Made by a program: the position numbers and the translations under genes
Notes under the pieces: model-generated
The model's database searches: none
What the model was told of the DNA's origin: nothing
The model's input: the letters and a program-made list of their open reading frames with translations, nothing else
Part shown: piece after piece, positions 606-17,521 of the stretch
Position numbering within the stretch: the stretch's first letter is position 1
Layout: every line of letters begins with the position of its first letter
NCBI GenBank assembly: GCA_944320815.1
Contig: CALUIZ010000009.1
Location: 1-64,000, forward strand
Length of the DNA: 64,000 nt
Origin: an uncultured Phocaeicola sp.
Lineage (GTDB): Bacteria; Bacteroidota; Bacteroidia; Bacteroidales; Bacteroidaceae
Direction of reading: 5' to 3'

Positions 606-979
606 TGTTCCGTGTTTTCTAAATCTTCGTCATTCAAAAGATACTCATATTCCGTTCCTCTCAAACTTTTCGGGTCGTATTCTTTTCGATAATCCAATAT
701 GTATGAATGTATTAAACCGGGATAAGTATAGAAATAGTGACGGCATACGTGCTTGAACAGTTGCAGCATACGTTCATCGCCAAGAAAGCTGAACATATAA
801 TCAAACAGAAGCCCCACTTCGTTTTGAGAGGCTTTGCGGCTACAAATATCCTTCACCAACGGAGTGTATTCAACTACCGCCATATCGGCAAGTCCTTGCA
901 TCTGTTCAACAATTCCGTTCATGCTTTCCAACAAGCTGTCGTAATCACCCATATTGTCATTGCGACGCGTTGTGTTCAT
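602..979 (-). CDS. Small protein of unknown function in the type I R-M operon
   Basis: This encodes 125 residues that I do not recognise. The sequence is acidic and helix-rich, with no signal peptide or membrane segment. An alternative start at the internal Met of MGDYDSLLESM would shorten it by nine residues. It lies between rhuM and hsdS on the same strand and its stop overlaps the hsdS start (ATGA), so it is very probably co-transcribed and translationally coupled with the specificity subunit. The position suggests a role tied to HsdS or to restriction control, but this is inference from context only. Confidence 0.75.
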   Translation of the reverse strand: MNTTRRNDNMGDYDSLLESMNGIVEQMQGLADMAVVEYTPLVKDICSRKASQNEVGLLFDYMFSFLGDERMLQLFKHVCRHYFYTYPGLIHSYILDYRKEYDPKSLRGTEYEYLLNDEDLENTEQ

Positions 980-1035
980 TGTCTGTTCTGCTCTAAAATT
1001 TCCATTCCAAATCGGTAATTACGATTACCGATTTG

Positions 1036-2037
1036 CTATTCTCCCAACATATCCCTTACTTCTTTGTCGAAATCCGAGTCAATTCGCTGGGTACGATTGA
1101 ATATGTCGTACTCATTTTCGGCTTTTGCCTTTGCTTGTGCGGCAGAAATACGTCCTTTGTCGGGCAAGATTTTATAATCATTGAACGTCAGGAACTTGTT
1201 TACGCTTGCGGCGAATTGCTCCATGGTGAAAGGGTTTTGACGCTCTATTTGATTTTCTATATAGTCAAAATAAGAAGTTACCGTACGTTCCAGTTGCCGG
1301 ATTTGTTTCTCGTCCAAATAATTCTTCGCTATCGACACATCAGATTTGAGTATTCGCCCTTTGGGAGAGTTCTTCCACGTGGTCAACCCCATGTGTTCTT
1401 TGGTATGGTCTGCCTTGGTGTAGATGATTTCTGCTGCTGTCTGTCCGGTAATAGCATAGTGGAAGCGGTTTTGCACCATTGCGTAAAACTCTTTTGTTGT
1501 CGGGGAATTGCGGTCATAGTCTGTACTGCATTCGGCATAAATATCCGTAATCTGTTGCCAGATACGCCGTTCACTCGCACGAATGGAGCGTACCCTTTCA
1601 AGCAACTCGCGGAAATAATCCTTGCCGAATACAGCCGTTCCTTGCTTTAACCTGTCATCATCCAATACGAAACCTTTACGAATATACTCATTGAGTATCT
1701 TTGTTGCCCATTGGCGGAAACGGGTGGCTTTCGTAGAATTCACACGATAACCGACGGAGATAATCATGTCGAGGTTGTAGAAATCAACAAGCTCTTCAAC
1801 CTCTCCTCTTATACCTCTGTTCACGACGGTTGCAATTTTTGCAACTGTCGTATCGGGAGATAATTCACCGTCTTTGTATATGTTGGCAATGTGACGGCTG
1901 ATTCCCGATTTATCAACGCCAAAAAGTTGAGCCATTGCCTTTTGGGTACACCAAATCGTATCGTCTTTGATGACGACCTGCACTTTGCCCTCTTCTTCTG
2001 GCATACTGTAAAGTAGAAATTGTATTTCGTTTGCCAT
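1036..2037 (-). CDS. rhuM: RhuM-family protein (virulence RhuM-like)
   Basis: A 333-residue protein with the hallmarks of the RhuM family: an N-terminal segment with the motif WCTQKAMAQLFGVDKSGISRH, resembling a winged-helix DNA-binding fold, then DLDMIISVGYRV-like and TRFRQWATKIL motifs (here NLDMIISVGYRVNS). Family members were named for a Salmonella pathogenicity-island gene but are widespread in type I R-M loci; their biochemical role is not established. It begins five bases after the hsdM stop and precedes the small gene and hsdS, so it is embedded in the R-M operon. A DNA-binding regulatory or accessory defence role is plausible but unproven. Confidence 0.88.
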   Translation of the reverse strand: MANEIQFLLYSMPEEEGKVQVVIKDDTIWCTQKAMAQLFGVDKSGISRHIANIYKDGELSPDTTVAKIATVVNRGIRGEVEELVDFYNLDMIISVGYRVNSTKATRFRQWATKILNEYIRKGFVLDDDRLKQGTAVFGKDYFRELLERVRSIRASERRIWQQITDIYAECSTDYDRNSPTTKEFYAMVQNRFHYAITGQTAAEIIYTKADHTKEHMGLTTWKNSPKGRILKSDVSIAKNYLDEKQIRQLERTVTSYFDYIENQIERQNPFTMEQFAASVNKFLTFNDYKILPDKGRISAAQAKAKAENEYDIFNRTQRIDSDFDKEVRDMLGE

Positions 2038-2042
2038 GATGC

Positions 2043-3701
2043 TTATTCTTTAATGTTATTGAATTGCAGACTATCCAATTGCCTTATTATCTCTGCTTCC
2101 AATCGGCGGCTTTCAGCAAATTGCTCGGTAAGCGTCCGTTTATATTCTTCCATTCGGGCATTAAATTCTTCCTCTGTTATATCCACATAGTCAATCTTTA
2201 TGTCGAAATACTGCCCGGCAGAAAGGCTATAACCTTTCTCCTTGATTTCATCGTAGGTTACGGCTACTGAGAAATCATCTACTGCCTCTTTGTTTTGGAA
2301 CGTATTGACTATCTGGTCTATCTCAAAGTCACGAAGACGGCGTTTTTGGTTGTTCCCCTCTTTATACTCCTCGCCTAATTTGCTTGCATCAATTAAGATA
2401 ACCTTGTCGTGATTGGCCGACTTATCAAAGAAGATAACCGACACGTTGGTTCCAGTTGTAGCAAATACATTGCTTGGCATGGAAACAACGCCATACACCC
2501 ATCGTTCATCTACAACACGCTGCAAGATGCGCTTCTCAACACCACTCTTGGCTGTAATGAAACCAGTGGGAATGACAATGGCAGCCTTGCCTGTTGGCTT
2601 CAAGGAGTTAAGTACATGCTGTATGAAGCAGGTATAGATAGCCATCTTTGGCTTCATCGGGTCAACCTTTTTCACTGCATTGGGCACTCCTGCCCAGAAG
2701 CGGATGGTATCGGATGCCAATGTATCGCGGTATTCAGGGAAATCGAGCTTGAACGGAGGATTGGAAACAATAAAATCAAATTTGCGCAACACACCGTTAC
2801 TCTCTTTGTGGGATGGTTCCGTAAGCGTATTGCCTTGCACTACATTAGGCAGCGAGGCCGCAAAGTTATTAAGAATCAAATTCAAACGAAGCATTTCCGT
2901 GGACTTCTCTGAAATGTCTTGCGAAAAAATGGTGCAGCGTTCTTCACCTATTTGATGTGCCAGTGCCATAAGCAATGTGCCTGTGCCTGCGGAAGGGTCA
3001 TAACAGGTCACGCCGCGTAAATCCGTATTATCACCTACCAACAGGCGAGCCATCACTTGTGCGATGGCACGTGGTGTGTAATATTCGGCATATTTTCCGC
3101 CACCAGCATTGTTGAAACCTTTCAGCAGATGCTCGAAAATGCGTGAGAAGAAATCGTATTTCTCATAAAAAACGTCTTCAAAGTTGAATGAAGCCACATT
3201 GCGCATCAGCGATTTGGCAAATTCGTCACGTTTCTGCGTATCAGTAACGTAGGTTGTCAACGGAAAGAAGATATTGACTTTGCTCTTCCCCGATGTGGTA
3301 ACAGAAAATGTCTCGGCATTGAGCGAGGCTATATCTACCAATGTAGCATCGAGCAGAGTGGAGAAATCTCCCTTTGTGGCAGAGTTATAGAGATGCGACA
3401 ACGTATGTTCGGGTTTCAAGCGTGGCACGGAATGCGGCAGATAGCTGAATAAATCTTCCACTTCTTCCTCAGTAAAAGTATCGTATTCAGCATCCCACTT
3501 TTCTGCTTTCGACAATCGTTCTCCATACATCGGGTCACGCTTGGCTTCATAGCCAAACTTGTCATTGAAGAACTTATAGAGGAACATTTCTGTCACAATC
3601 TTGTACTCACTCCCAGTTCCAGCCAGTCCAAAGGCACTGGTGGTACTTTTCAAAGAATCAATAAGGGTTATGGTAGCCTCGGATATGTTGATGTTACTCA
3701 T
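2043..3701 (-). CDS. hsdM: Type I restriction enzyme methyltransferase subunit HsdM
   Basis: N6-adenine DNA methyltransferase subunit of the first type I system; with HsdS it forms the M2S modification enzyme, and with HsdR the restriction complex. The 552-residue protein has the helical HsdM N-terminal domain (about 1-150), the SAM-binding motif DPSAGTG at 235-241 and the catalytic motif NPPF at 314-317. The start codon abuts the hsdR stop directly (3701/3702), indicating tight operon organisation. It is only distantly similar to the second HsdM at 12869-14479, so the two systems are not a recent duplication. Confidence 0.96.
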   Translation of the reverse strand: MSNINISEATITLIDSLKSTTSAFGLAGTGSEYKIVTEMFLYKFFNDKFGYEAKRDPMYGERLSKAEKWDAEYDTFTEEEVEDLFSYLPHSVPRLKPEHTLSHLYNSATKGDFSTLLDATLVDIASLNAETFSVTTSGKSKVNIFFPLTTYVTDTQKRDEFAKSLMRNVASFNFEDVFYEKYDFFSRIFEHLLKGFNNAGGGKYAEYYTPRAIAQVMARLLVGDNTDLRGVTCYDPSAGTGTLLMALAHQIGEERCTIFSQDISEKSTEMLRLNLILNNFAASLPNVVQGNTLTEPSHKESNGVLRKFDFIVSNPPFKLDFPEYRDTLASDTIRFWAGVPNAVKKVDPMKPKMAIYTCFIQHVLNSLKPTGKAAIVIPTGFITAKSGVEKRILQRVVDERWVYGVVSMPSNVFATTGTNVSVIFFDKSANHDKVILIDASKLGEEYKEGNNQKRRLRDFEIDQIVNTFQNKEAVDDFSVAVTYDEIKEKGYSLSAGQYFDIKIDYVDITEEEFNARMEEYKRTLTEQFAESRRLEAEIIRQLDSLQFNNIKE

Positions 3702-6700
3702 TTAATATGCGTAATTACGTTGTTGTAAATATTCTGTTGTTATTAAGTTGCTTAAATATTTTCGGTCTTTGATGTCTGTCCTTATTTTCATGGCTATAAG
3801 TTCCTTGCCTACGATAGACAACACATCTTGGCCAAATGCAGGTTCGTTGTCGAGAATGTTGATGTCAAGGAACAGCCGTTTGTCAATCTCGTCTTTCATC
3901 TTGGCTAAATTCTCGGCAATCTCATATTCGTGTGCCGATATGATGGGGCGTTCACGCTTTTGGTTTTGCTCCTCAATGCGCTTGTGGATGCGGACAAACC
4001 GCTCATCTCCTTTATACTTACGTTTAAGGATGTTGTTGCGACGGTTGATTTCGCGTATTTTCTTCATTACCTCGTCCATATATTGAATGCTCGCCTTGGC
4101 ATCCTCGGTGCTTTGCGGCACAAATCCTTTTTTGCGGAAATATTCGCGGAACTCATCGGCAAGAATGACATACCGTTCTTCTCTGGTATCGAAGTTTGCC
4201 TCAAACTCTGCTTGTACCCGCTCGCAACGCTCCCGAATATCATTGACTACAATCCGCAACTCTTCGGGTATTCCTTTCTTGAATTCAAATTCTAATTCTG
4301 AAAGAGCCACATTGATGATGCCGGAAACATCAGCCTTGTGTTCTGTACTTTCAAAAAGATTGATGCGCTCAATGCGGTGGGTGACCTCTGTTATAAGGGA
4401 GGGTATTCTTCCCATAGGGAGCGAAGCAAGTTTCTCTTTGGTTTCTTCATCGCCAAAAGAACGTACTTGATTGATGATAGCTTTGGCATCGGAGAGCGTG
4501 TTGCGCAGCTCATACAGACTATCCTTGTTTTCAATCTCGTCTATTTGTTCGCGAAATTCCTCTACATTATCAACAGTGAAATTGAAGAGCACACTCTTTA
4601 TCTCTTTTATCTTGGCCTCTACGTCTTCTTTGCTGACCAATATGTCGTTGGCGATGTTTTCGGTATGCGGATTATCTGATTCGTCCGAAGTACGGTTAAG
4701 TTCTCGCAAATAACGGTCATTGGTTGCATCAAAGTTTTCCTTGATGTCCACAAAGTCAACTACATAGCCATACTTGAAATCATGATAAGGACGATTTACC
4801 CTTGTAAGGGCTTGCAGCAAGTCGTGGCCATCGAGAGAACGACCCAAATATAATTTCTTCAAACGCGGCGCGTCAAAGCCCGTAAGAAGCATCTTATTGA
4901 CGATGAGAACATCAATCTCCTGCTGTTTCTTAAAGCCCTCAATATACGCCTTGCGTTCCTGTTTGTCACCCTCGTCATGCAGTATGAGCGATGCGGTCAA
5001 TGGCTTGTAGTTCCCGTATTGGAGCATCGGTTCTGCTGCCATAAACACTTGTCGCTCTTGGTATTTGATAACCTTGCTTGCAATATTGAAGCGTTCCTGC
5101 CAAAGGCGGTATAGTTCCCTTGCCTGTGGATTTGTGCGGCATACTATCATTGCGCCCACTGTTTCGTCGTTTTGTTCCTTTCGGAAGCGGCGGAAGTCTG
5201 ATATGATATAATCTAATAGAGCATTCAGGTAGCTTTCATGCTCCATAATTTGATTACGGTCAATATCTGACTTCTTGACTTCCACATTGCCAGCCAACTG
5301 GTCGAGGATGTTCTCAATCTTCTCTTTATATATTGTTTCGACAGGCTCGCGCATCAGTTTGCAAGTGTAGCCATCGGCAATGGATTTGTCGTAATAGTAT
5401 GTATGAATGTAGTCGCCGAATACTCGCCACGATTCGCGTTCCTCTTTCAATAGCGGTGTTCCTGTCAATGCGATTTTGACTGCGTTTTTGTCTGCCTCCA
5501 AAAGGTTTGCCAAGAAACTACCCTGCGGATTATAGCCACGGTGCGCTTCATCAACGAAGAAAATCCGTTGCAAATGAGTGCTGTAACTATCTTCCATCGT
5601 CACTTTGGCTTTGTCCTCTTTGAATTTTTGGATATTGACCACCATGATTTCAGGTTTTCCCTCATCATTGCTTGTTACTTCCCTACTTGCAATATCATCC
5701 ATCAACTCTTTGCGGCTCTTGGCGTTGTGGACTACAAGCCCACGGGCGGCAAATTCATCTGTAGCTTGCTCCATCAAGTCAATGCGGTCAACTATGAAAT
5801 AAAACTTTGCCACCACATTACGTTGTGCGAAATAGTCAGTCAGACTTTTCACACTGTAATAGGCGAGCGCAGTTTTCCCGCTCCCTTGCGTATGCCAAAT
5901 GATACCGCTTTTCACACCTCTTGATAAAGCGTTGCGGATGGCATACGAAGCGAACAACTGCTGATAACGCATCACATGCTTTTGTAATTGAGTTCCCTGT
6001 GTGCCATCAGCCAGTTCTATTTTGCGTTCCACGTATGCAAACCCATAGCGTAGCAAGAATAAAAATCTCTCCTTGCTCAACATGGAAGTAATGGTTCGGT
6101 TTGTCGGTGTAGTTGCAGATTTATTGGTTTGGTATTCTTGCAAGTTTTTAATGACCACGCAATTGCGATGTTTCAGCACTTTATTCTCCATTTCATCAGT
6201 GATATCCTGATAAGGATAATCTGGTACGTACCGTTTGTCTTCCTCACGGAACACGTTGAAAAACGCCTTCTCCTTAGCCGTGCAACAATAAAATGCCCCT
6301 TGTATAGGCACACGACTATCGGTGTCATACTCTTGGTTGTTGGAGAAAATCATCAGTTGGGTGATGTTGAAGAAGCGGCGGAAGCACGACTTGCTCATTC
6401 GCTTGTTGATTCGCTCCCTTTCCGCCAAAATACCTTCACGGTTGTTCGGCTTCTTAACCTCAATGAAAGCGAGAGGAAGACCATTTACAAAACAAGTGAT
6501 ATCAGGACGAAACTCATCTTCTGTATCTTCATTCTCACAAGTAAATTCCGTAGTTACATGCCAATCGTTATTTTCTGGATTTTCAAAATCAATGAGTTTT
6601 GTACCGCTATTTGCTGAAAGCAACTGGTAAAACTCACGCCCCAAATCATCATTATTGGCAATATTCACGATTTTGGCATACAACAGTGATGCATCCGAGC

Positions 6701-6872
6701 TTGACAATCCGGGATTAAGGCGTTTTACTGCATTCAAGAAAACGTCAATCAAGATATTTGTCTTTGTGTCATAGGCACAGATGTTATCCAAATAAGTATA
6801 TCCCAACTTGCACAGATGGAGCGCTGCCGGAACTTGTACTCTGGTATTCTCATTAAATTTGTTATTGCCCAT
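3702..6872 (-). CDS. hsdR: Type I restriction endonuclease subunit HsdR
   Basis: Translocase/nuclease subunit of the first type I R-M system, 1056 residues. Visible domains in order: the N-terminal nuclease domain with a PD-(D/E)xK-type site (D124, E138, K140 in RPDIT...FIEVKKP), the Walker A motif GSGKT at 331-335, the DEAH box at 442-445, the helicase motif TGTP near 471, and a long helical C-terminus that would contact HsdM. All key residues are present, so the enzyme looks functional. The gene begins 11 bases after the small XRE regulator and ends flush against hsdM. Confidence 0.96.
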   Translation of the reverse strand: MGNNKFNENTRVQVPAALHLCKLGYTYLDNICAYDTKTNILIDVFLNAVKRLNPGLSSSDASLLYAKIVNIANNDDLGREFYQLLSANSGTKLIDFENPENNDWHVTTEFTCENEDTEDEFRPDITCFVNGLPLAFIEVKKPNNREGILAERERINKRMSKSCFRRFFNITQLMIFSNNQEYDTDSRVPIQGAFYCCTAKEKAFFNVFREEDKRYVPDYPYQDITDEMENKVLKHRNCVVIKNLQEYQTNKSATTPTNRTITSMLSKERFLFLLRYGFAYVERKIELADGTQGTQLQKHVMRYQQLFASYAIRNALSRGVKSGIIWHTQGSGKTALAYYSVKSLTDYFAQRNVVAKFYFIVDRIDLMEQATDEFAARGLVVHNAKSRKELMDDIASREVTSNDEGKPEIMVVNIQKFKEDKAKVTMEDSYSTHLQRIFFVDEAHRGYNPQGSFLANLLEADKNAVKIALTGTPLLKEERESWRVFGDYIHTYYYDKSIADGYTCKLMREPVETIYKEKIENILDQLAGNVEVKKSDIDRNQIMEHESYLNALLDYIISDFRRFRKEQNDETVGAMIVCRTNPQARELYRLWQERFNIASKVIKYQERQVFMAAEPMLQYGNYKPLTASLILHDEGDKQERKAYIEGFKKQQEIDVLIVNKMLLTGFDAPRLKKLYLGRSLDGHDLLQALTRVNRPYHDFKYGYVVDFVDIKENFDATNDRYLRELNRTSDESDNPHTENIANDILVSKEDVEAKIKEIKSVLFNFTVDNVEEFREQIDEIENKDSLYELRNTLSDAKAIINQVRSFGDEETKEKLASLPMGRIPSLITEVTHRIERINLFESTEHKADVSGIINVALSELEFEFKKGIPEELRIVVNDIRERCERVQAEFEANFDTREERYVILADEFREYFRKKGFVPQSTEDAKASIQYMDEVMKKIREINRRNNILKRKYKGDERFVRIHKRIEEQNQKRERPIISAHEYEIAENLAKMKDEIDKRLFLDINILDNEPAFGQDVLSIVGKELIAMKIRTDIKDRKYLSNLITTEYLQQRNYAY

Positions 6873-7185: not shown

Positions 7186-7935
7186 CTATAGATTATGGGC
7201 AATAGGAACGATATGTTCATCTATTTTAATCTTATGTTTCCCAGTTGTTGTGCGTAAATTTTTCCTGATGGTATCAATGGTGGAATTGACAAACCATTCG
7301 TGGAATGTCTGCATAACGAATTGTGCTGTGACATCCCGGCTGATGTTGTATTGAAAAGCAATGTTCCAAGCGAAGTTCTTTAATGAGATTTGGGTAACGG
7401 CTATATGCCGTTTGATGTGAATGTTTACATTAAGAGCTTGCCGATTGGTGACAAAGTATCGGACACATTCGCAGATTTGGAAGATTTCTTCTTCGCTAAA
7501 GTCAAACTGCCTGAATGTGTTTCGGGTGTATTGCAATACGGCTTGTAGCTTTTCATCTTCTTCTCTTTCTTTTTGCTGGAGATATTGTTGTTCTTCATGC
7601 TGATATTCATAATGGAATAACTCCATCCGTTTCATTTGGATGTTGTTGTCGACCGCAGACATAGCAGTGACCAAAGTGCAATCAGCTTTAGTTTGTCGGT
7701 CAGATTGCGCAGGCTTGTGACAGAATAAAGAAGTAAGGGATATTATATGTGCCGACAGAGAGAGGCATAAATGGTAAATGAGTTTTAGAGCAACATAACA
7801 AGCTACCATGACAAAAGGGAGAATGCTTAACCGCACCCCCAAAGCATCACTCACAGGAAATGATATTGTGGATGCCAGAAGCACCGTTATTACTTCTATT
7901 GTCCATGACTGGAATATATGTTGCTTTTGCTTCAT
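7186..7935 (-). CDS. Membrane protein of unknown function between the two R-M operons
   Basis: A 249-residue protein I do not recognise. The N-terminal 75 residues contain two hydrophobic stretches (around VITVLLASTISFPV and ILPFVMVACYVALKLIYHLC) that look like membrane segments. A Gln/Glu-rich, probably coiled-coil section follows (about 110-130), then a soluble C-terminal domain of about 110 residues. It stands alone between the terminator of the second R-M operon and the xre gene of the first. Similar lone membrane proteins occur in mobile elements of Bacteroides, but nothing in the sequence proves that origin. A -7 box (CAAAGGTA on plus) lies upstream at 7962-7969. Confidence 0.65.
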   Translation of the reverse strand: MKQKQHIFQSWTIEVITVLLASTISFPVSDALGVRLSILPFVMVACYVALKLIYHLCLSLSAHIISLTSLFCHKPAQSDRQTKADCTLVTAMSAVDNNIQMKRMELFHYEYQHEEQQYLQQKEREEDEKLQAVLQYTRNTFRQFDFSEEEIFQICECVRYFVTNRQALNVNIHIKRHIAVTQISLKNFAWNIAFQYNISRDVTAQFVMQTFHEWFVNSTIDTIRKNLRTTTGKHKIKIDEHIVPIAHNL

Positions 7936-8289
7936 AACTATTTTTATCTATGGTTGTTTTGCAAAGGTATAACGTATTTCCGTAAAAAACGAAAGTCAAA
8001 AATAAGCAGCAAAGAGGCAACAACTTCATTTTATGGCGTTTGTGCAAACAAAAGCATACCATCTGCAAAAACGGCTAACAAGTATAAAGAAAATCGGGTA
8101 AAATCGCGATAGTTAAATAAACATAAATCTTTCTTTGACCTATGTAAAGCCATGTTTGTCATTGTGGCTTCTGTACGCTACATATAAAACTATCCTTATT
8201 TGTACCATCAATATGTAAGCCATTGATATTCATCGCATATTATATTTGTGGATGTGAAGTAATTTATTGATAGATAAATTGATATAATA
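7936..8289. other. Intergenic stretch between the unknown membrane gene and the second hsdR
   Basis: About 350 AT-rich bases with no supported gene. It holds a minus-strand -7 box at 7962-7969 for the 249-residue protein, and a plus-strand TATATTTG at 8241-8248 without a partner -33 element. Short open frames here lack start signals and family resemblance. It ends at a hairpin terminator (8290-8330). Confidence 0.6.
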
Positions 8290-8330
8290 AAAATGAGGTA
8301 TAATCTTAATGATTGTACCTCATTTTTTGC
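8290..8330 (-). terminator. Hairpin terminator after the second R-M operon
   Basis: An 11-bp perfect stem (AAAATGAGGTA at 8290-8300 pairing with 8316-8326) with a 15-nt loop, flanked by A/T runs on both sides. It lies just after the hsdR stop at 8341 on the minus strand and could work in both directions. Confidence 0.75.
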
Positions 8331-8340
8331 AATATTATGG

Positions 8341-11300
8341 TTAGAGACTTTTCTGATTATGCTTCTTGAAATTCTCAACTTGATCCATAACCTGATCGAG
8401 CACTTCATCATTATATTGCGGTGGATAACCATTCTTCACTAGGCAGAAGAATATTTTCTGGTTCAAATCTGCCCTTATATTTGAGTTGTTCAGCCAATCG
8501 GTAAATGAAGATTGCAAGTCTATAAGCTCCTTTATCTTCTTGGCAAGTTCCTTACACTTGTTGTTAATGATAAGATTTCCTACTTTCTTGTCTGTTCCAT
8601 ATTCAAAGTCATATTTGTCACGTAAATGAAGAAGGATGTCATAGAACGCCTTTTCTTCAAACGTCAGTCCCAATTTACGGAAACTCTCTTTATCCTCTCC
8701 CAGTTCGGCAAGAATATCGAGAGCCTGTTTTGTCGCGTTTCTTATAATTTCATCAACAGCTTCATTCTGAGTATTTGTAGCTTCCTCTGCCGTAAGCTTG
8801 GATCTCCTGTTATGGTATTCTTCAAGTGTTTTTTTAAGAAGCTCCTCATATTTTTCCGCTGCTATCTTATTGGTGTTCTTGTATTCTTTGATAGACTTTC
8901 TCAACATTTTGACAAGAACCTCCAGTTTGGTTGCCGGCAGTTTCACGTTGTTAAGTTGTTCCACAAATTCAGGACTGAAAATATTTTCTTCCACATCTGT
9001 TTCAAGAATGCTTACTACAGAATTGCATTTCAAGGCTTCGGCAACCATCTTTTCCACGGCTCTGTTCATGCTTTCTGTATCGTGTTTCTCGCCTGATGTC
9101 TTTCTTATGTATGATGCAATGGCCATAAAGCATTGTGACAGCGAAAGCTGTTCGTTGGTCAGTACATTTGATGGCTGACACACATCGTATGCAGCTTTCA
9201 GCCTTTTTACATGTGCCAGGAAAAAAGTCCTGGCTTCTACTTTTTGGACCTGACCATTGGCGTTGGCCACATTAAGCTGGTCGGTAAGGGTGATGACATA
9301 GTCTGCTGCTGACGACAAGCATTCAAGCCTTTCCAAGGGAGCAGCCTCAGGATTGGTAAATGGAGATAGATCAAATCCTGTAAATACTTTTTTAATAAGG
9401 TCCAGCTCTATTATAAGCGCCTCCAATGCCTGTTCCACGTCATCTTCACTTGGTCCGAATGTATCACCTCCGTACTTTCGCATTGCCTGCATCATATTGT
9501 CATGGATTCCGATATAGTCTATGATATATCCATACGGTTTACCGGGATACTTTCTGTTTACACGACTGATGGTCTGGATAAGAGTCTGCTTTTGCAGTGG
9601 CTTGTCATTATACAGGTATGTCAGACAAGGGACATCAAATCCCGTAATCCACATATCAACTACAATAACCAGACGGAAATTGGAATGTTCCTTCTTGAAG
9701 GCATCGTCCATTTTCTTTGTTCTCGATTTATCCCCAAGATAATCATACATTTCTTTCGGGTCGTTCTTTCCACGTGTCGCTACCATGGCAATAGTGGGCA
9801 TCGGTGAAAGCTCTTTCAACTCTTCTTCCGTGACCTTGTTTTCATCCGGTGTCTTTTTCTCTTCAAACCATTCAGGTTTCAGCTTTCTGAATTTCTTCAG
9901 CAGATTAAACGCGATGTGTCGCTTGCTACATACAATCATGGCTTTCTGCACCACATCCTCGTTGTTTTCACAAGCCTTTGTGTAGTGTCCTATGATATCG
10001 TTTGCCAGTCTTTCCAGACGTTCATCGTCACCCAAAATCACTTCCATTGAGCTCATGGCCTTCTTGCTTGCTTCAATGTCTGATTCTGTAGCACCTTCAT
10101 CCGCACATTTCTTATAGTATGCGTCTATTTCCTTGACCTTTTCGCTGTCGAGTGTCACTTTGGCCATACGGGGTATATATTTCAGCTCTACGGTTATTTC
10201 ATCATCGACAGCCTGCTGCATAGTGTAGCTGTCAACTATTTCACCGAAGACCTGAATGGTTTCTTCTATCGGTGTGCCGGTGAATCCGACAAATGTTGCG
10301 TTGGGGAATGCACAACGAAGATGTTCTGCGTATGGTTTGGTTATGAAAGCTCCAATCTTGCTTTCATTCTCTTCTGAATCCAGTCCATTATCCAGAGGCT
10401 TCCGGTCTTTTATCTTCAACTGACTGTTCAGGCGTATTTGTGTCCTATGTGCCTCGTCAGAGAAGCAGATGATATTCTTTCTTCTGTTCAGTTCTCCTGT
10501 ATCCTCGCAAAACTTCTGGATGGTACAGATAAAGAAACCTCCCGTTTCCCTCATGGAGAGTTCTTTTTTCAGTTTATCACGGTTGGGGATAACCTGTGCG
10601 GCACCGGCAGAAAGATATTCCTCAGAGCGGAGAAACAACTTTCCTGCCTGTGACTGTAAATCGTCTCTGTCCACAATCATCACAATGGTAGGTGAGCCAA
10701 TCTCACTGCATCTTAATGACAACTGTCTTGCCAGAAACATCATGGTATAAGTCTTTCCGCATCCGGTCGCGCCAAAATAGGTTCCACCTTTGCTGTCTCC
10801 GGTCGCGTATGCTTTCCTTATACTTTCCCTAAGCATGCGTGTGGCGAAAAACTGAGGATAACGGCATACTATCTCTTCTTCTTTGTCACTTTTTTTGTCC
10901 GGGAAATAGATGTAATCTCTCAAAATCTCCAGAAACCTTTTGGGCTCATACACACCTGCAACTATGGTCTTTACCTGATCTATACCTTTCTGAGCGGCAG
11001 GATCTTCATTTCTCACTTTTTTCCAGGCATAATAATGCTCGTATGGTGTATATGTAGTTCCCAGTTTCGTGTTGTTCGCTGTTGCGTCACTGATGCATGA
11101 CAGAGGGCAATATCGCAACAGATGAGGTATATCCCGCATATATCTTTCATGTATCTGGTCGTATGCGTCAGCGATGGTTGCATTCTCATCGGTAGGATTC
11201 TTCAGTTCAAATACGCACAATGGGATACCGTTTACAAACAGAAGGACATCCGGAATGCGTATGTCTCCTTTTATTCCGTAACCTACCTCAAACTGATTGA

Positions 11301-11658
11301 CACAGCGGAATATATTATGTTTTGAATCAGGAGTGAAATCCAGATATTCTATATCAAAAATCTTTCCATCATCATGCCGGATATAGCGATAGCCGTCGCG
11401 AACCAAATAATAAGAATTACGGAGCAAATTAAAATGTGTTTGTCCGCCAACATGTCTCAGATGATTGGTCACTTCCTCTATGTCATTGTCTTTCAGGTCT
11501 GGATATCTGTCCAAAAGATAGGTTTTCAAATCATCCAGAATCAAAGTTTCACGGTTATTTCTTGCTATCTTGCCACCGTGAGTATATTCCCATCCTTGTG
11601 CCTGCAACAGGTATATCAGGGCCTCCTCGTATTCATTTTCGTAAAACTTTCCTTTCAT
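8341..11658 (-). CDS. hsdR: Type I restriction endonuclease subunit HsdR (second system)
   Basis: Translocase/nuclease subunit of the second type I R-M system, 1105 residues. The N-terminal nuclease site shows D137 and E151/K153 (IPDVLLF...FELKNP); the Walker A motif GATGCGKT is at 296-303, the DEAH box at 401-404 and the motif FTGTPIEET further on, with a long helical C-terminus. The architecture differs from the first HsdR, which lacks equivalent spacing and sequence, so this is an independent system. It lies 90 bases after hsdS, whereas hsdM and hsdS overlap, and the gap contains inverted repeats that may control restriction separately from modification. Confidence 0.96.
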   Translation of the reverse strand: MKGKFYENEYEEALIYLLQAQGWEYTHGGKIARNNRETLILDDLKTYLLDRYPDLKDNDIEEVTNHLRHVGGQTHFNLLRNSYYLVRDGYRYIRHDDGKIFDIEYLDFTPDSKHNIFRCVNQFEVGYGIKGDIRIPDVLLFVNGIPLCVFELKNPTDENATIADAYDQIHERYMRDIPHLLRYCPLSCISDATANNTKLGTTYTPYEHYYAWKKVRNEDPAAQKGIDQVKTIVAGVYEPKRFLEILRDYIYFPDKKSDKEEEIVCRYPQFFATRMLRESIRKAYATGDSKGGTYFGATGCGKTYTMMFLARQLSLRCSEIGSPTIVMIVDRDDLQSQAGKLFLRSEEYLSAGAAQVIPNRDKLKKELSMRETGGFFICTIQKFCEDTGELNRRKNIICFSDEAHRTQIRLNSQLKIKDRKPLDNGLDSEENESKIGAFITKPYAEHLRCAFPNATFVGFTGTPIEETIQVFGEIVDSYTMQQAVDDEITVELKYIPRMAKVTLDSEKVKEIDAYYKKCADEGATESDIEASKKAMSSMEVILGDDERLERLANDIIGHYTKACENNEDVVQKAMIVCSKRHIAFNLLKKFRKLKPEWFEEKKTPDENKVTEEELKELSPMPTIAMVATRGKNDPKEMYDYLGDKSRTKKMDDAFKKEHSNFRLVIVVDMWITGFDVPCLTYLYNDKPLQKQTLIQTISRVNRKYPGKPYGYIIDYIGIHDNMMQAMRKYGGDTFGPSEDDVEQALEALIIELDLIKKVFTGFDLSPFTNPEAAPLERLECLSSAADYVITLTDQLNVANANGQVQKVEARTFFLAHVKRLKAAYDVCQPSNVLTNEQLSLSQCFMAIASYIRKTSGEKHDTESMNRAVEKMVAEALKCNSVVSILETDVEENIFSPEFVEQLNNVKLPATKLEVLVKMLRKSIKEYKNTNKIAAEKYEELLKKTLEEYHNRRSKLTAEEATNTQNEAVDEIIRNATKQALDILAELGEDKESFRKLGLTFEEKAFYDILLHLRDKYDFEYGTDKKVGNLIINNKCKELAKKIKELIDLQSSFTDWLNNSNIRADLNQKIFFCLVKNGYPPQYNDEVLDQVMDQVENFKKHNQKSL

Positions 11659-11673
11659 GATGATGGTCGTTAT

Positions 11674-11720
11674 ATGTTTATATTTTAAACATGTACCCGA
11701 ATTGATGATTTTGGGTACAT
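11674..11720 (-). promoter_or_regulatory. Inverted repeats between hsdS and hsdR (possible operator)
   Basis: Two dyads overlap in the hsdS-hsdR gap. ATGTTTA at 11674-11680 pairs with TAAACAT at 11686-11692 across five bases, which is operator-like. ATGTACCC at 11691-11698 pairs with GGGTACAT at 11713-11720 across 14 bases, which is hairpin-like. The proximal dyad ends about 16 bases before the hsdR ATG. Function is inferred from position only. Confidence 0.4.
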
Positions 11721-11748
11721 ATATGAGTTATGGCTTATCTTTACCTTG

Positions 11749-12882
11749 TCATTGATGTATGGCTTTTTGAATTAATGCGGGACAAATCTCTTTAAGCTTT
11801 TCCCTTGCTTCTGAGGCTATCTTCTTGGCTTCTTCCATACAGTGATATAGGTTTACTATAGATTGCTGTACTTCTATGGGTGGAAGAGGGATTTGTACTC
11901 TACAAAGTTCTTCCCAGTCGAATGTCTCTCTTGCGCTTCCCCAAGAATTGAATCTTGAATATCTGTCAAATTCGCTGCGGCTTAATATTAAAAATAAATA
12001 TTCCGGTTGTAGTACACTCTCATTTATACATTTAAAATTAATGTATGATGATGATACGATATAAGTTCTTTCTGTGTTGTTTATAGCTAATGATATTTTT
12101 CCTCCATTTCTTGATGTTACTGATACATAACAAAATTCTCTTGGCTTGAGGATTTTATAAGGTAATAAAGAAACATCCTTCATATCGGCTTTTGTATTGA
12201 TGAGTTTTTTCCCAATACTTATACCACGTACATCATCAAGAGTATATATGCCCTCACTATTTCTTTCATCGCAGTATTCTATATGCTTCCCTAAAAGGTC
12301 TGTATTATATTTGTGCTGACAATTGACTATAAAAGCCTCACAGGCCTTACTTAATGGCTCTATCAATGCCTCATTTTGTTCTGCAAGAGACTTTAGTCCA
12401 TTATAGGTGTCTACCAATTCTTGTTGGACTTTCATTGACGGTAAAGGTATTTGTACTCTGCAAAGTTCTTCCCAATCGAATGTCTCCCTTGCGCTTCCCC
12501 AAGAATTGAATCTTGAATATCTGTCAAACTCGCTGCGGCTTAATATTAAAAATAAATATTCCGGTTGTAGTACACTCTCATTTATACATTTAAAATTAAT
12601 GTATGATGATGATACGATATAAGTTCTTTCTGTGTTGTTTATAGCTAATGATATTTTTCCTCCATTTCTTGATGTTACTGATACATAACAAAATTCTCTT
12701 GGCTTGAGGATTTTATAAGGTAATAAAGAAACATCCTTCATATCGGCTTTTGTATTGATGAGTTTTTTTCCAATACTTATACCACGTACATCATCAAGAG
12801 TATATATGCCTTCACTATTTCTTTCATCGCAAAGTTCAATATAGTTTCCAAGCTGTACCCATTTCGTCTTATTCGCATTCAT
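11749..12882 (-). CDS. hsdS: HsdS specificity subunit with two identical target-recognition domains
   Basis: DNA-recognition subunit of the second type I system, 377 residues, slightly short for HsdS. The recognition domains occupy about residues 18-145 and 204-331, separated by helical spacers (about 146-203 and 332-377). The two domains have the same amino acid sequence over roughly 128 residues, exactly 186 residues apart, while the DNA differs at six positions that are all silent. In ordinary type I enzymes the two domains differ and read two different half-sites; two equal domains should read a palindromic split target (inference). It overlaps hsdM by 14 bases. Confidence 0.95.
   Translation of the reverse strand: MNANKTKWVQLGNYIELCDERNSEGIYTLDDVRGISIGKKLINTKADMKDVSLLPYKILKPREFCYVSVTSRNGGKISLAINNTERTYIVSSSYINFKCINESVLQPEYLFLILSRSEFDRYSRFNSWGSARETFDWEELCRVQIPLPSMKVQQELVDTYNGLKSLAEQNEALIEPLSKACEAFIVNCQHKYNTDLLGKHIEYCDERNSEGIYTLDDVRGISIGKKLINTKADMKDVSLLPYKILKPREFCYVSVTSRNGGKISLAINNTERTYIVSSSYINFKCINESVLQPEYLFLILSRSEFDRYSRFNSWGSARETFDWEELCRVQIPLPPIEVQQSIVNLYHCMEEAKKIASEAREKLKEICPALIQKAIHQ
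11891..12273 (-). repeat. Recognition-domain direct repeat, copy B (C-terminal domain)
   Basis: This 383-bp block is repeated at 12449-12831, an offset of 558 bp. By eye the copies differ at six bases, all transitions and all silent. It encodes the second recognition domain of the second HsdS. Confidence 0.93.
12449..12831 (-). repeat. Recognition-domain direct repeat, copy A (N-terminal domain)
   Basis: Partner of the block at 11891-12273, encoding the first recognition domain of the second HsdS. The protein copies are identical although the DNA copies carry six silent changes. Confidence 0.93.
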
Positions 12883-14479
12883 ACCCCAATAACTTTAAAG
12901 CATTTCTTAATGTGGCATCATTTTCTTTCTGGCGTTTCAAAAGTCCAGATACAGTTTTAGCCGTATCAGAAAGAACTTCCTCATAATCGATGCCATTGTC
13001 ACGGTCTTCAAACCTGATGTATCTGCTTGGTACCAGTGAGAAGTTGTTGGATTCAATGCCATCAATGTCGTAAACTCCTACAGAACGGTACAGTTCCGGT
13101 TTGGAATAACTTTTTCCGTCGGTACCTTCACTCTGCCACCTGAAATATATTTCCGAGGCACGCTTTATCTGTTCGGCAGATAATACGAACTTCTTCTTCT
13201 GCTCACCCTTTACCGGGTTGGTAGCCCACTGGCGCAAGTCCATGAAAAGGATTTCATGCTCTCTGTTACGAAGCTTGCGGCCATGCCACAGACCACCTCT
13301 CTTGTTCTCGTTCAGTATCCAGAGAGTCACGGAAATATCTGTAGAATAAAACAATTCTCGCGGCAAGACAATAATGGCTTCAATCTTGTCATTCTCAATC
13401 AGTTTCTGACGGATATTCTGGGTATCCGTATCTCCCAATGCACCATTTGCCAACAGGAATCCCGCTACGCCTTTTCCAGCTTTAAGTTTGGACAGAATAT
13501 GCAGAATCCAGGCATAGTTGGCATTGCTTTCAGGAGGCACAGAATAGCCGGCCCATCTTTCATCATTGCTGAGATTGGTGTCATACCAGCTCTTCAGGTT
13601 GAACGGAGGGTTGGCCATGATATAATCAAAAGTCAGTCCGCGGTGCAGGTCATTGGTGAAAGTGGAAGCATTCTTCTCTCCGAGATGATGCGATATACCT
13701 CTGACGGCAAGATTCATCTTTGCCAGACGATACGTTGCCGGGTCGCTTTCCTGACCATACACATTTACCATAGAGATGTCGCCCTGTTTGGCTTCCACAT
13801 ATTTGGCGCATTGAACGAACATGCCTCCGGAACCGCAGCACGGATCGTATAATGTTCCGTCGAAAGGCTCGATAAACGCTGCAATCAATTCGACTACATC
13901 ATGCGGTGTATAGAACTCTCCATCTTCCTTAGTGGCATTTACGGCAAACGATTTCAGAAAATATTCATAAACACGGCCGATAAGGTCTTTCTCTTCGCCG
14001 AAAGCCTTGTGGGATACCTTGTTCACTTCATCCACGACCTTCTTTATGACATTGCTTTCAAGGTTTATTGAAGAAAACAAGCCCAGACGCACGCATCCTT
14101 TGAACGCTTTTCCGCTGTCGTCAATGGCTTGTAACGCATCATCCAAAGCGGCATTCAGTTTGGTTGAAGGGACATTTATGAGCATTGACCAGCGAGCCGG
14201 TTCCGGAACGTACGAAATGCCTTTATATCTGTTGGGGTTTTTGGTGTAATATTCTATTATCGGTTCTTCAAGGATTCCATTGTTAATGCAGTCCTGACGC
14301 ATTTTCTCTTTCTCGTCTTCAAACTTTTCCCCTATGAAACGCAGGAATACGAGAGTCAGAAGCAGATCCCGTTTGTCGTTCAACGATGCATTGCCGCGCA
14401 GATAATCACGGCAATTGAGTAATATACTTTCCAAGTTCAAAGCCTTGTCTTCTTTCTTTTTAGTCGCTTTTTTTGCCAT
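12869..14479 (-). CDS. hsdM: Type I restriction enzyme methyltransferase subunit HsdM (second system)
   Basis: N6-adenine methyltransferase subunit, 536 residues. The N-terminus is Lys-rich (MAKKATKKKEDK), followed by the helical HsdM N-domain (LNLESILLNCRDYLRG), the SAM motif DPCCGSG at 212-218 and the catalytic NPPF at 290-293. It is the first gene of the second operon, driven by a strong promoter match at 14515-14545, and overlaps hsdS by 14 bases. With the equal recognition domains of its HsdS it would methylate both strands of a symmetric site. Confidence 0.96.
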   Translation of the reverse strand: MAKKATKKKEDKALNLESILLNCRDYLRGNASLNDKRDLLLTLVFLRFIGEKFEDEKEKMRQDCINNGILEEPIIEYYTKNPNRYKGISYVPEPARWSMLINVPSTKLNAALDDALQAIDDSGKAFKGCVRLGLFSSINLESNVIKKVVDEVNKVSHKAFGEEKDLIGRVYEYFLKSFAVNATKEDGEFYTPHDVVELIAAFIEPFDGTLYDPCCGSGGMFVQCAKYVEAKQGDISMVNVYGQESDPATYRLAKMNLAVRGISHHLGEKNASTFTNDLHRGLTFDYIMANPPFNLKSWYDTNLSNDERWAGYSVPPESNANYAWILHILSKLKAGKGVAGFLLANGALGDTDTQNIRQKLIENDKIEAIIVLPRELFYSTDISVTLWILNENKRGGLWHGRKLRNREHEILFMDLRQWATNPVKGEQKKKFVLSAEQIKRASEIYFRWQSEGTDGKSYSKPELYRSVGVYDIDGIESNNFSLVPSRYIRFEDRDNGIDYEEVLSDTAKTVSGLLKRQKENDATLRNALKLLGYECE

Positions 14480-14514
14480 ATATTACATTATTGAATGTGG
14501 AATGATGTATGACA

Positions 14515-14545
14515 CAAAGATAGTTCAAACAGAGTTAAACACAAA
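14515..14545 (-). promoter_or_regulatory. Promoter of the second R-M operon
   Basis: On the plus strand CAAAGATA (14515-14522) is followed after exactly 19 bases by CAAA (14542-14545). Read on the coding strand this is TTTG-N19-TATCTTTG, a perfect Bacteroidota promoter, about 35 bases before the hsdM ATG. Confidence 0.8.
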
Positions 14546-14576
14546 GTAAAGCTCCGGTTTTCAGACCATGCCAGAC

Positions 14577-14664
14577 TTAAAAACATGAATGCTGGTTCAT
14601 CAAAAACACGCTGATGTTCTGATGAAAATACCTTGTTGTTTTGATAAAAGTACCGGCATGTTTT
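14577..14664. repeat. Degenerate ~22-bp tandem repeat, locus A
   Basis: Four consecutive 22-bp units start at 14577, 14599, 14621 and 14643. The clearest two share GAT(A/G)AAAnTACC followed by TGTTTT at the same register. A further related unit near 14730 (AAGAATACCGGTATTCTT, a perfect palindrome) falls almost in phase inside the 3' end of the AraC gene. It belongs to a family seen at four other intergenic loci in this window. Confidence 0.6.
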
Positions 14665-14724
14665 TGTCTTGGAGCAAGCTTTATGAAAGTCCGTTCTGTT
14701 TCATGCCCAAGAACCTGTTTGGGT

Positions 14725-15582
14725 TTAATGATAAGAATACCGGTATTCTTGTGGAGTGGTGCCAACCAGTTTCTTGAACAGGCGGTTGAAGTAAGAATAG
14801 TCGTCGAAACCAAGATTGAGGGCGATGTCTTTTACCAGCGTATCACTTGTAACCAATATAAGCTGGGCCTTCTCTATCTTTTTTTGATTGATGTATTGGA
14901 GTGGAGTCGTTTTCACTTCATGCTTGAACATACGGATGAAATGGTCTTTGGACAAACATGTCTGTGCAGCCAGTTCGTCTATGCTCAGGCTTTTGTTGAT
15001 GTGGTTATGGATATATGACAGCACTTTCGTCAGCCGTTCGTCTCTTTTTTTCGATTTTTCCTGCGCATATCTCATGAAATGGGAGAGGAGCTGGTAGACG
15101 ATGCCTCTTGATTCCACCTTGTCATAAAAGGCTCGTTGTTTGTTCTTCAGCAGGTTCTGCATGAGTGTGATGTTGTTGTCATAGACTGTGGGGTCCACCT
15201 TTTGCAGGTTCATGTGCGGATTGATGGCGCAGAAACGTTTCATCAGTGCCAAATCCAGTTCGCTGCCGGGTATTTCTACCGGAAACTCCCATTCGTCCAA
15301 TATACTTTTCCCCTCCTGGTTTTCTTCGTAGATGTGCATGTAGTAATGGCAGAAATAGGAGTCACAGATATTGTCGTGTTTGGTGAATGCCGGAATAAAG
15401 TACATGTGCTGGGGACTCAGCCGGTAAATGCCGGAAGGCAGTTTCACCTGCGCTCTTCCTTCCGTTACATAATACAGGCGGATAAAGGGACTGGTGACAT
15501 CTTGCCAGTTCCAGTCAGCATGGTGAATGGATAGTCCGGCGTTCAACACGACAGGATGCAGTTGGTCTATTGAGAAATTCAT
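14725..15582 (-). CDS. AraC-family transcriptional regulator
   Basis: A 285-residue regulator with an N-terminal cupin-like sensing domain (about 20-160, including YRLSPQHMYFIPAFTKH) and a C-terminal AraC DNA-binding domain with two helix-turn-helix motifs (IDELAAQTCLSKDHFIRMF and VKDIALNLGFDDYSYFNRLF). It is transcribed divergently from the GH29 fucosidase with both promoters in the shared 286-bp gap, so it most likely controls that gene in response to a sugar ligand (inference). It also marks the right border of the restriction island. Confidence 0.9.
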   Translation of the reverse strand: MNFSIDQLHPVVLNAGLSIHHADWNWQDVTSPFIRLYYVTEGRAQVKLPSGIYRLSPQHMYFIPAFTKHDNICDSYFCHYYMHIYEENQEGKSILDEWEFPVEIPGSELDLALMKRFCAINPHMNLQKVDPTVYDNNITLMQNLLKNKQRAFYDKVESRGIVYQLLSHFMRYAQEKSKKRDERLTKVLSYIHNHINKSLSIDELAAQTCLSKDHFIRMFKHEVKTTPLQYINQKKIEKAQLILVTSDTLVKDIALNLGFDDYSYFNRLFKKLVGTTPQEYRYSYH

Positions 15583-15609
15583 GATAAGGTATCTGTGTCA
15601 TTCTGTCTG

Positions 15610-15640
15610 CAAATATAAACAAGGCGTGTGAATCTTCAAG
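15610..15640 (-). promoter_or_regulatory. Promoter of the AraC regulator gene
   Basis: CAAATATA (15610-15617) and, 19 bases further, CAAG (15637-15640) read as CTTG-N19-TATATTTG on the coding strand, a near-perfect Bacteroidota promoter about 28 bases before the start codon. Confidence 0.6.
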
Positions 15641-15740
15641 GCTTATGCCGAAATAATCCTATAAAACGCTGCTGTTTCCTGAGCCTAATCTTTTGATTCG
15701 GGAAATAAGCCGGCAAAGTTCTATTATAATGCGTCAATGT

Positions 15741-15772
15741 CTTGTCATGGGATGTTTTATTGCATACCTTTG
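15741..15772 (+). promoter_or_regulatory. Promoter of the GH29 fucosidase gene
   Basis: TACCTTTG at 15765-15772 matches the -7 consensus, with CTTG at 15741-15744 about 20 bases upstream as a -33 element. The leader to the chosen ATG would be about 90 bases. Confidence 0.55.
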
Positions 15773-15868
15773 TATGGTTAAATGTGCTTTATGAATGTCT
15801 GCGGACAGCCGATACAGAAGCGGACATTTATATTGTTCTATATATTCATTAACTTAATAATACAATGT

Positions 15869-17521
15869 ATGAGACACAAGGTTTTGTTTTTTCCTCTTTT
15901 GTTTTGCGCGACTTTCGTGTCGTGCGGACAAGCCCCAAAGTCTTCCTATGAAGTGCCGGTCTCCGAAGCCGACGAACCGATGATGACGGGCAAGTTTGAA
16001 CCTGCATGGGAGTCGTTGGAGAATTATCAGGTACCGGAGTGGTTCCGTGACGTCAAGTTTGGTATCTTTTCTCATTTCGGTCCTCAGAACGTGGAAGGGT
16101 CGGGCGACTGGATGGCCCGTGGCCTGTATATTGAAGGCTCCGCACAATACAATTATCATGTGGAACACTATGGACATCCTTCTGAGGTTGGCTTTAAGGA
16201 CATCATTCCCTTGTTCAAGGCAGAGAAATGGAATCCGGATTCACTGCTGGCCTTTTATAAAAAGATAGGTGCCCGATATATCGTGGCTTTGGGAAACCAT
16301 CATGATAATTTTGACTTGTGGGACAGCAAGTATCAGCCTTGGAATTCCATGAATATGGGACCGAAGCGTGATGTTCTGGACGGCTGGGCAAAGGCGGCCC
16401 GTAAATTGGGCATGTATTTCGGTGTCAGTCTTCATGCCGACCATGCCTGGTTATGGTATGAGACGGCGCAACGTCATGATACCATTGGTCCGAAGAAAGG
16501 CATTCCTTATGACGGCAAGCTGACCAAAGCCGATGGCAAAGGCAAATGGTGGGAAGGTTACGATCCGCAGGATCTGTATGCGCAGAACCATCCGTTGAGC
16601 GAGAACAGTTGGGACAATGGCATGATTCACCGCCAATGGGCGTGGGGAGAAGGTGCTTGCACTCCTTCGCAGGAGTATGTGACTAACTTCTACAACCGTA
16701 CGCTGGATGTGATCAACCGTTATAATCCTGATTTGTTGTATTTTGATGTAACCGTACTTCCTTTCTATCCTGTCAGCGATGCCGGTTTGAAGATAGCTGC
16801 TCATTACTATAATCATAATATGGCTACGCACGACAATAAGCTGGAAGGAGTCATTACGACCAAGATTCTGGACGAAAGACAGCGCAAGGCTCTGGTGTGG
16901 GATGTGGAGCGTGGTGCTCCGAACAAGATGCTTCCTGACCCGTGGCAGACATGTACGTGTCTGGGTACATGGCATTATCATACGGAGTTCTATGAGCGTG
17001 GCTGGTATAAGTCGGCTGCCAGTGTGGTGAAATTGCTGATGGATGTAGTGAGTAAGAACGGCAATCTGCTGCTGAATGTTCCTTTGCGTGCCGATGGTAC
17101 GTTTGATGACAAAGAAGAGAAGATATTGAATGAGTTCGGTGAGTGGATGGCAGTCAATGGCGAAGCAATTTACGGGACACGTCCCTGGAAGGTGTTTGGT
17201 GAAGGGCCTATAGCCAATGCGGACATTGCAATCAATGCCCAAGGTTTCAATGAAGGTTCCTACACGAATGCCACTGCCGAGGAAATCCGCTTTACGCAAA
17301 AGGGGAATGATTTGTATGCAACGGCTTTGGCATGGCCGGAAAACGGAAAAGTGGTTGTGAAGTCGCTTGCTGAGGGTAGCGGACTCTATCCCGGTAAAAT
17401 AAGGGAAGTGGAATTGTTGGGTTATGGAAAGGTGGACTTCAGACGCACGGCTGACGGGCTTGTCATTGAATTGCCCGAAAAGCAGTTGAATAAGATTGCT
17501 CCGGTTCTCAAGGTGAAGTGA
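15869..17521 (+). CDS. GH29 alpha-L-fucosidase lipoprotein
   Basis: An exo-acting fucosidase that would release L-fucose from host or plant glycans, 550 residues. I chose the ATG at 15869 because the protein then starts MRHKVLFFPLLFCATFVSCGQ-like with a lipobox ending in Cys, giving a membrane-anchored lipoprotein; the frame stays open 29 codons further upstream. GH29 features include VKFGIFSHFG near the N-terminus, HHDNFDLWDS, and LLYFDVTVLPF, whose Asp is the likely nucleophile. The divergent AraC regulator is its probable controller. No other carbohydrate genes adjoin it, so it is not part of a full PUL. Confidence 0.88.
   Translation: MRHKVLFFPLLFCATFVSCGQAPKSSYEVPVSEADEPMMTGKFEPAWESLENYQVPEWFRDVKFGIFSHFGPQNVEGSGDWMARGLYIEGSAQYNYHVEHYGHPSEVGFKDIIPLFKAEKWNPDSLLAFYKKIGARYIVALGNHHDNFDLWDSKYQPWNSMNMGPKRDVLDGWAKAARKLGMYFGVSLHADHAWLWYETAQRHDTIGPKKGIPYDGKLTKADGKGKWWEGYDPQDLYAQNHPLSENSWDNGMIHRQWAWGEGACTPSQEYVTNFYNRTLDVINRYNPDLLYFDVTVLPFYPVSDAGLKIAAHYYNHNMATHDNKLEGVITTKILDERQRKALVWDVERGAPNKMLPDPWQTCTCLGTWHYHTEFYERGWYKSAASVVKLLMDVVSKNGNLLLNVPLRADGTFDDKEEKILNEFGEWMAVNGEAIYGTRPWKVFGEGPIANADIAINAQGFNEGSYTNATAEEIRFTQKGNDLYATALAWPENGKVVVKSLAEGSGLYPGKIREVELLGYGKVDFRRTADGLVIELPEKQLNKIAPVLKVK

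What the first reader, a model, noticed from the sequence alone, without database searches (positions are those of the whole stretch)
11749..12882. HsdS with two identical recognition domains: predicted palindromic type I target
Seen directly: two 383-bp blocks 558 bp apart encode the same ~128 residues and differ by six silent bases. Known of the family: each recognition domain reads one half of a split asymmetric site. Inference: this enzyme should methylate and cut at a symmetric site (half-site, spacer, inverted half-site), which is rare among natural type I systems and resembles engineered or half-subunit dimers. The silent-only changes suggest selection or repeated gene conversion rather than a fresh duplication.
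Basis: partly seen in the sequence, partly recalled or inferred. Interest (0 to 1): 0.75.

Follow-up and report, generated by a model that had tools for sequence, protein, structure and literature searches.

The report
Type I specificity subunit, twin recognition domains
A bacterial DNA-restriction gene carries the same DNA-reading domain twice, so the enzyme very probably reads a mirror-symmetric DNA site; this is unusual, but it fits known behaviour of this enzyme family and seems to arise when domains are copied or swapped within the gene.

Summary
HsdS (window 11749-12882, minus strand) has two direct blocks, 558 bp start to start, encoding 131 identical residues. The gene lies in an intact-looking hsdM-hsdS-hsdR operon.

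The predicted palindromic bipartite target is well supported by inference, but no methylome exists here. In H. pylori JHP1422, an S construct with two identical TRDs methylates AAGN5CTT. M.BstXI ([CCA]~[CCA]), NgoAV and EcoR124INT behave alike.

The evolutionary reading needs correcting. The central 239 bp are identical even at silent sites, and every difference lies in the flanks: the mark of a recent copying of the TRD core between older conserved flanks. Relatives show the same traffic: TRD1 and TRD2 mix in the tree, and two alleles of an orthologous locus, 98.9% identical through hsdM and the first half of hsdS, differ by a whole TRD2 (B/A versus B/B). An unrelated HsdS (L136) has an identical TRD pair with the same footprint. 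Such pairs are rare: 1 of 172 sampled Bacteroidota HsdS. It is a new member of a known kind, not a new mechanism.

The parts
12869..14479 (-). hsdM, 536 aa, N6-adenine methyltransferase subunit; NPPF motif at residue 290
   Evidence: Pfam N6_Mtase and HsdM_N, PADLOC MTase_I, motif
11749..12882 (-). hsdS, 377 aa, specificity subunit with two identical TRDs; overlaps the end of hsdM by 14 bp
   Evidence: AF2 model pLDDT 91.8 matches solved HsdS over the whole length
12439..12831 (-). TRD1 block, codons 18-148
   Evidence: 131 residues identical to TRD2, ten silent differences
11881..12273 (-). TRD2 block, codons 204-334
   Evidence: 131 residues identical to TRD1, ten silent differences
12530..12768 (-). 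TRD1 core, 239 bp without any difference: probable minimum tract of the recent copy
11972..12210 (-). TRD2 core, 239 bp, identical to the TRD1 core
12310..12435 (-). first long helix (conserved region 1), residues 150-191
   Evidence: DSSP on the AF2 model; not identical to helix 2
11755..11877 (-). second long helix (conserved region 2), residues 336-376
   Evidence: DSSP on the AF2 model
8341..11658 (-). hsdR, 1105 aa, restriction/translocase subunit; PD...ELK at 136, GATGCGKT at 296, DEAH at 401
   Evidence: Pfam HSDR_N, SWI2_SNF2, T1RH-like_C; NCBIfam hsdR above cut-off; motifs

Best explanation
This is a complete type I restriction-modification system whose single HsdS carries the same target recognition domain (TRD) in both positions. 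Inferred mechanism: the two TRDs sit in inverted orientation in the complex, so both read the same half-site on opposite strands; the enzyme methylates adenine in, and restricts DNA lacking methylation at, a palindromic bipartite site (half-site, spacer, inverted half-site). The state arose recently, when a TRD core was copied from one TRD position to the other (gene conversion, domain movement, or recombination with another allele) with the conserved flanks as homology. Shown here: the identical domains, the footprint of recent copying, intact partner genes, and TRD traffic between positions in relatives. Inferred: activity and the palindromic site.
For: 131 identical residues, differences silent and confined to the flanks, 239-bp identical core. 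Intact HsdM and HsdR with motifs. Confident model with elements repeating at +186 residues and full-length matches to solved HsdS. TRD1/TRD2 mix in the tree with at least 9 forced changes. Two alleles of an orthologous locus differ by a whole TRD2, B/A versus B/B. An unrelated HsdS with an identical pair and the same footprint. Literature: identical TRDs give a palindrome (PMC3936762), M.BstXI, EcoR124INT, TRD specificity independent of position, domain movement (PMC3077401).
Against: No methylome and no activity data. Half-site and spacer unknown. Short-read assembly could in principle have joined two alleles. The two conserved helices differ, so the two TRDs need not be held in exactly the same way. 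No sibling strain was available to show the state before the copy.
Confidence: 0.82

Rival explanations
1. Passing by-product: the symmetric specificity exists but is not selected. Identical TRDs are a short-lived result of TRD shuffling, and the next recombination will replace one TRD, or delete one through the direct repeats, in frame (558 bp), leaving a half-HsdS with the same TRD.
For: The core is identical at silent sites, so the state is young; identical pairs are rare, 1 of 172; TRD replacement is seen between close alleles.
Against: Near-symmetric pairs recur in this lineage (L065 89%, L016 73%, L097 69%, L092 68%), and those of L065 have persisted long enough to gather many silent changes.
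Confidence: 0.55
2. Old duplication kept identical by protein-level selection for a palindromic site, without recent copying.
For: All ten differences are silent; six of six silent has probability about 8e-5 without selection.
Against: Zero silent changes in about 50 silent sites of the core against ten in about 31 in the flanks; selection on protein does not remove silent changes.
Confidence: 0.07
3. Assembly artefact: a mixed population of A/X and Y/A alleles was joined into A/A.
For: Draft genome of 70 contigs; a join inside a shared core would leave exactly an identical core with position-specific flanks.
Against: The contig is 106 kb and continuous, completeness 99.9, contamination 0.04; an independent HsdS in another genome shows the same pattern (L136).
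Confidence: 0.06
4. The HsdS is inactive, or one TRD does not bind, so no palindromic site is used.
For: Some H. pylori S genes had no detected motif (PMC3983042).
Against: Frame, motifs and model intact; TRDs of a homology group methylate in both positions.
Confidence: 0.12

Closest known systems
H. pylori JHP1422/JHP1423 (M.Hpy99XV), Krebes et al., PMC3936762
   Same: Type I S subunit with two identical TRDs; the pair methylates a palindrome, AAGN5CTT
   Different: The natural gene has three TRDs and two targets; the two-TRD form was a construct; unrelated lineage
M.BstXI (Loenen et al., PMC3874165)
   Same: Separate M and S; S has two TRDs that read the same half-site: CCAN6TGG
   Different: Its TRDs are similar, not identical, and it belongs to a type II system without a type I HsdR
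NgoAV and engineered EcoR124INT, EcoDXXI truncations (PMC3874165, PMC2877798)
   Same: Type I enzymes with palindromic bipartite targets
   Different: They get symmetry from two half-size S proteins; here both copies lie in one chain
Domain movement (DOMO) of TRDs, Furuta et al., PMC3077401
   Same: TRDs move between positions 1 and 2 through flanking repeats; one type IIG allele (HPV225_1544) has the same TRD twice
   Different: Described in H. pylori, S. pyogenes and M. agalactiae; this is a Bacteroidota lineage
Porphyromonas circumdentaria HsdS (L016)
   Same: Orthologous operon (HsdM 75%, HsdR 75%, HsdS 68%); its two TRDs share the same flanks
   Different: Its TRD cores fall in two different subclasses (TRD1 vs TRD2 73%), so it is not perfectly symmetric

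Membership tests
Type I restriction-modification system | hsdM, hsdS and hsdR together, with methyltransferase, nuclease and ATPase motifs | tested here: met
Type I restriction-modification system | HsdS with two TRDs, each followed by a long helix | tested here: met
   AF2 model and full-length matches to solved HsdS
Type I restriction-modification system | methylation and ATP-dependent cleavage at a bipartite site | not testable with these tools
   no methylome or enzyme assay
HsdS with symmetric specificity (two TRDs of one specificity) | both TRDs the same in sequence | tested here: met
   131 of 131 residues identical
HsdS with symmetric specificity (two TRDs of one specificity) | palindromic 6mA motif | not testable with these tools
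   needs a methylome
TRD domain movement (DOMO) | the same TRD class found in positions 1 and 2 of related genes | tested here: met
   tree of 102 TRDs, at least 9 forced changes of position; allele pair
TRD domain movement (DOMO) | recombination at repeats that flank the TRD | tested here: inconclusive
   footprint of identical core and diverged flanks fits; alleles before and after the event for this gene were not found
Phase-variable (invertible) hsdS locus | second hsdS, inverted repeats or a recombinase gene at the locus | tested here: not met
   no inverted repeats in 11000-13600; no recombinase or second hsdS found by Pfam among the genes tested from 7186 to 17521

The most novel reading that the evidence does not exclude
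In this Bacteroidota HsdS lineage near-symmetric subunits recur (window, L065, and less closely L016, L097, L092) and may be a selected, long-lived state in which full-length single-chain type I enzymes use palindromic sites, rather than a passing accident of shuffling.
Probability: 0.2. Interest if true: 0.5.

Novelty: new member of a known kind. Interest (0 to 1): 0.33.

Why it matters
Most type I sites are asymmetric; the review PMC3874165 names one natural palindromic type I system. A full-length S subunit with two identical TRDs inside a complete hsdM-hsdS-hsdR operon is a clean natural case. Its motif would give the specificity of one TRD without ambiguity and so help to assign half-sites in the many relatives that share this TRD class. 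The locus also keeps a readable footprint of how TRDs are copied within a gene.

Tried and rejected
Viral contigs: no relative. Plasmids: only relatives under 60% identity. Search of the own genome for a donor TRD: none. Literature phrase 'two identical TRDs': no paper. Rejected: phase-variable inversion at this locus (no inverted repeats); an old duplication held identical by selection alone (no silent change in the core). L065 first looked like a second fresh within-gene copy; its TRD2 differs from its TRD1 by many silent and some amino-acid changes, so it is an older copy or came from another B-type allele. Guessing the half-site from homologs was not possible: solved structures match at only 8-19% identity. 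Promoter and terminator scan: uninformative.

Full report
What is there. The ORF at 11749-12882 on the minus strand encodes a 377-residue HsdS. Compared with itself at an offset of 558 bp, codons 18-148 and 204-334 encode 131 identical residues. Over the full identical run of 393 nt there are ten, all silent. The operon reads hsdM (12869-14479), hsdS, hsdR (8341-11658), all on the minus strand. Pfam, NCBIfam and PADLOC matches fit the three subunits (only HsdR passes the NCBIfam cut-off), and the catalytic motifs are present: NPPF in HsdM; PD...ELK, GATGCGKT and DEAH in HsdR. Orthologous operons, with HsdM and HsdR about 73-76% identical, occur in Porphyromonas circumdentaria, in genome G278 and in a Paraprevotella MAG. 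The window's genome is an unnamed draft of 3.14 Mb in 70 contigs; from its relatives it is probably a member of the Bacteroidales (inference).

How recent is the identity? The differences are not spread evenly. The central 239 bp (gene nt 115-353) are identical in both copies and contain about 50 silent sites; the flanks contain about 31 silent sites and all ten differences. Selection on the protein does not remove silent changes, so the core was copied from one position to the other recently, between flanks that had diverged earlier under purifying selection (six of six silent: about 8e-5 without selection).

Is it a known process? Relatives say yes. In a tree of 102 TRDs of this family, first- and second-position TRDs are mixed: 15 changes of position, at least 9 forced by starred branches (many forks are unresolved because columns are few). 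The nearest relatives of the window's TRD are the second TRD of L067 and the first TRD of P. circumdentaria. The two TRDs of the window, of L065 and of L092 are each other's sisters with starred support. The best single case is a pair of alleles of an orthologous locus: G278 (L123, whose hsdS is L065) and the human faecal scaffold MT837748.1 (L308). They are 98.9% identical through hsdM and the first half of hsdS, then carry different TRD2 sequences, after which close similarity (93%) resumes. L308 has the classes B/A; L065 has B/B, its two copies 89% identical. A TRD2 replacement thus turned an asymmetric HsdS into a near-symmetric one, or the reverse.

How rare is it? Among 172 HsdS-like ORFs fetched from Bacteroidota genomes by Pfam PF01420, one (L136 of G449) has an identical TRD pair, two reach 70% over the best 100 aligned residues and four reach 50%. 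Cautions: the sample favours high-scoring HsdS, the ORFs were picked by position and length, and in L190 the similarity lies in the N-terminal part and not in the TRD. L136 belongs to another TRD family and shows the same footprint, an identical core with differences at the edges. Identical pairs are thus rare, of the order of 1%, but recurrent.

How it works. The AF2 model is confident (pLDDT 91.8, 58 sequences), its secondary-structure elements repeat at +186 residues, and a long helix follows each TRD. Solved HsdS structures are matched over the whole length: PacII, EcoKI, M. jannaschii, T. tengcongensis, EcoR124I and M. genitalium, Z 16-20. The model's own symmetry was not measured. In the type I complex as modelled for EcoKI, the two TRDs lie in inverted orientation, each with one HsdM (PMC3874165). 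With the same TRD twice, both half-sites should be the same sequence read on opposite strands. The half-site cannot be read from the sequence; known spacers are about 5-9 bp (PMC12707154). Experiment supports the step from identical TRDs to a palindrome: in H. pylori JHP1422 the construct with the two identical TRDs methylates AAGN5CTT, and the authors call the rule commonly accepted (PMC3936762). M.BstXI has two similar TRDs and the site CCAN6TGG; NgoAV, EcoR124INT and the CC398-1 half-S make palindromes by dimerising. TRDs keep their specificity in either position (PMC3983042).

Consequence (inference). Recombination between the two identical cores would delete 558 bp in frame and leave a half-HsdS with the same TRD, which by these precedents could dimerise and give a palindromic target of the same half-site. 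A single-TRD relative beside an hsdM occurs on a Planktothrix plasmid, next to a transposase gene.

Verdict. It is a new member of a known kind: useful rather than surprising.

Noticed in passing
window 1-6872 (-): A second type I-like cluster: HsdR (3702-6872), HsdM (2043-3701), a RhuM-family protein (1036-2037, PADLOC candidate PDC-S05), a small ORF (602-979) and an HsdS cut off by the contig end (3-605).
   Followed up: partly
L120 (own genome, contig C18, 3-989 and 1046-1858): Another HsdS fragment cut by a contig end lies beside a 270-residue protein that looks like a tyrosine recombinase (judged by eye), as in invertible hsdS loci; the contig breaks may mark a shuffling hsdS array.
   Followed up: partly
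L308 (MT837748.1): A record labelled 'Bacteriophage sp.' from human faeces holds an hsdM-hsdS-hsdR operon 98.9% identical over about 3.1 kb to one in bacterial genome G278; the phage label is probably wrong.
   Followed up: partly
L136 (genome G449, contig C34): An HsdS of an unrelated TRD family with an identical TRD pair and the same footprint of identical core and diverged edges.
   Followed up: partly
window 7186-7935 (-): A 249-residue ORF between the two type I clusters matches no family in Pfam, NCBIfam or PADLOC.
   Followed up: no
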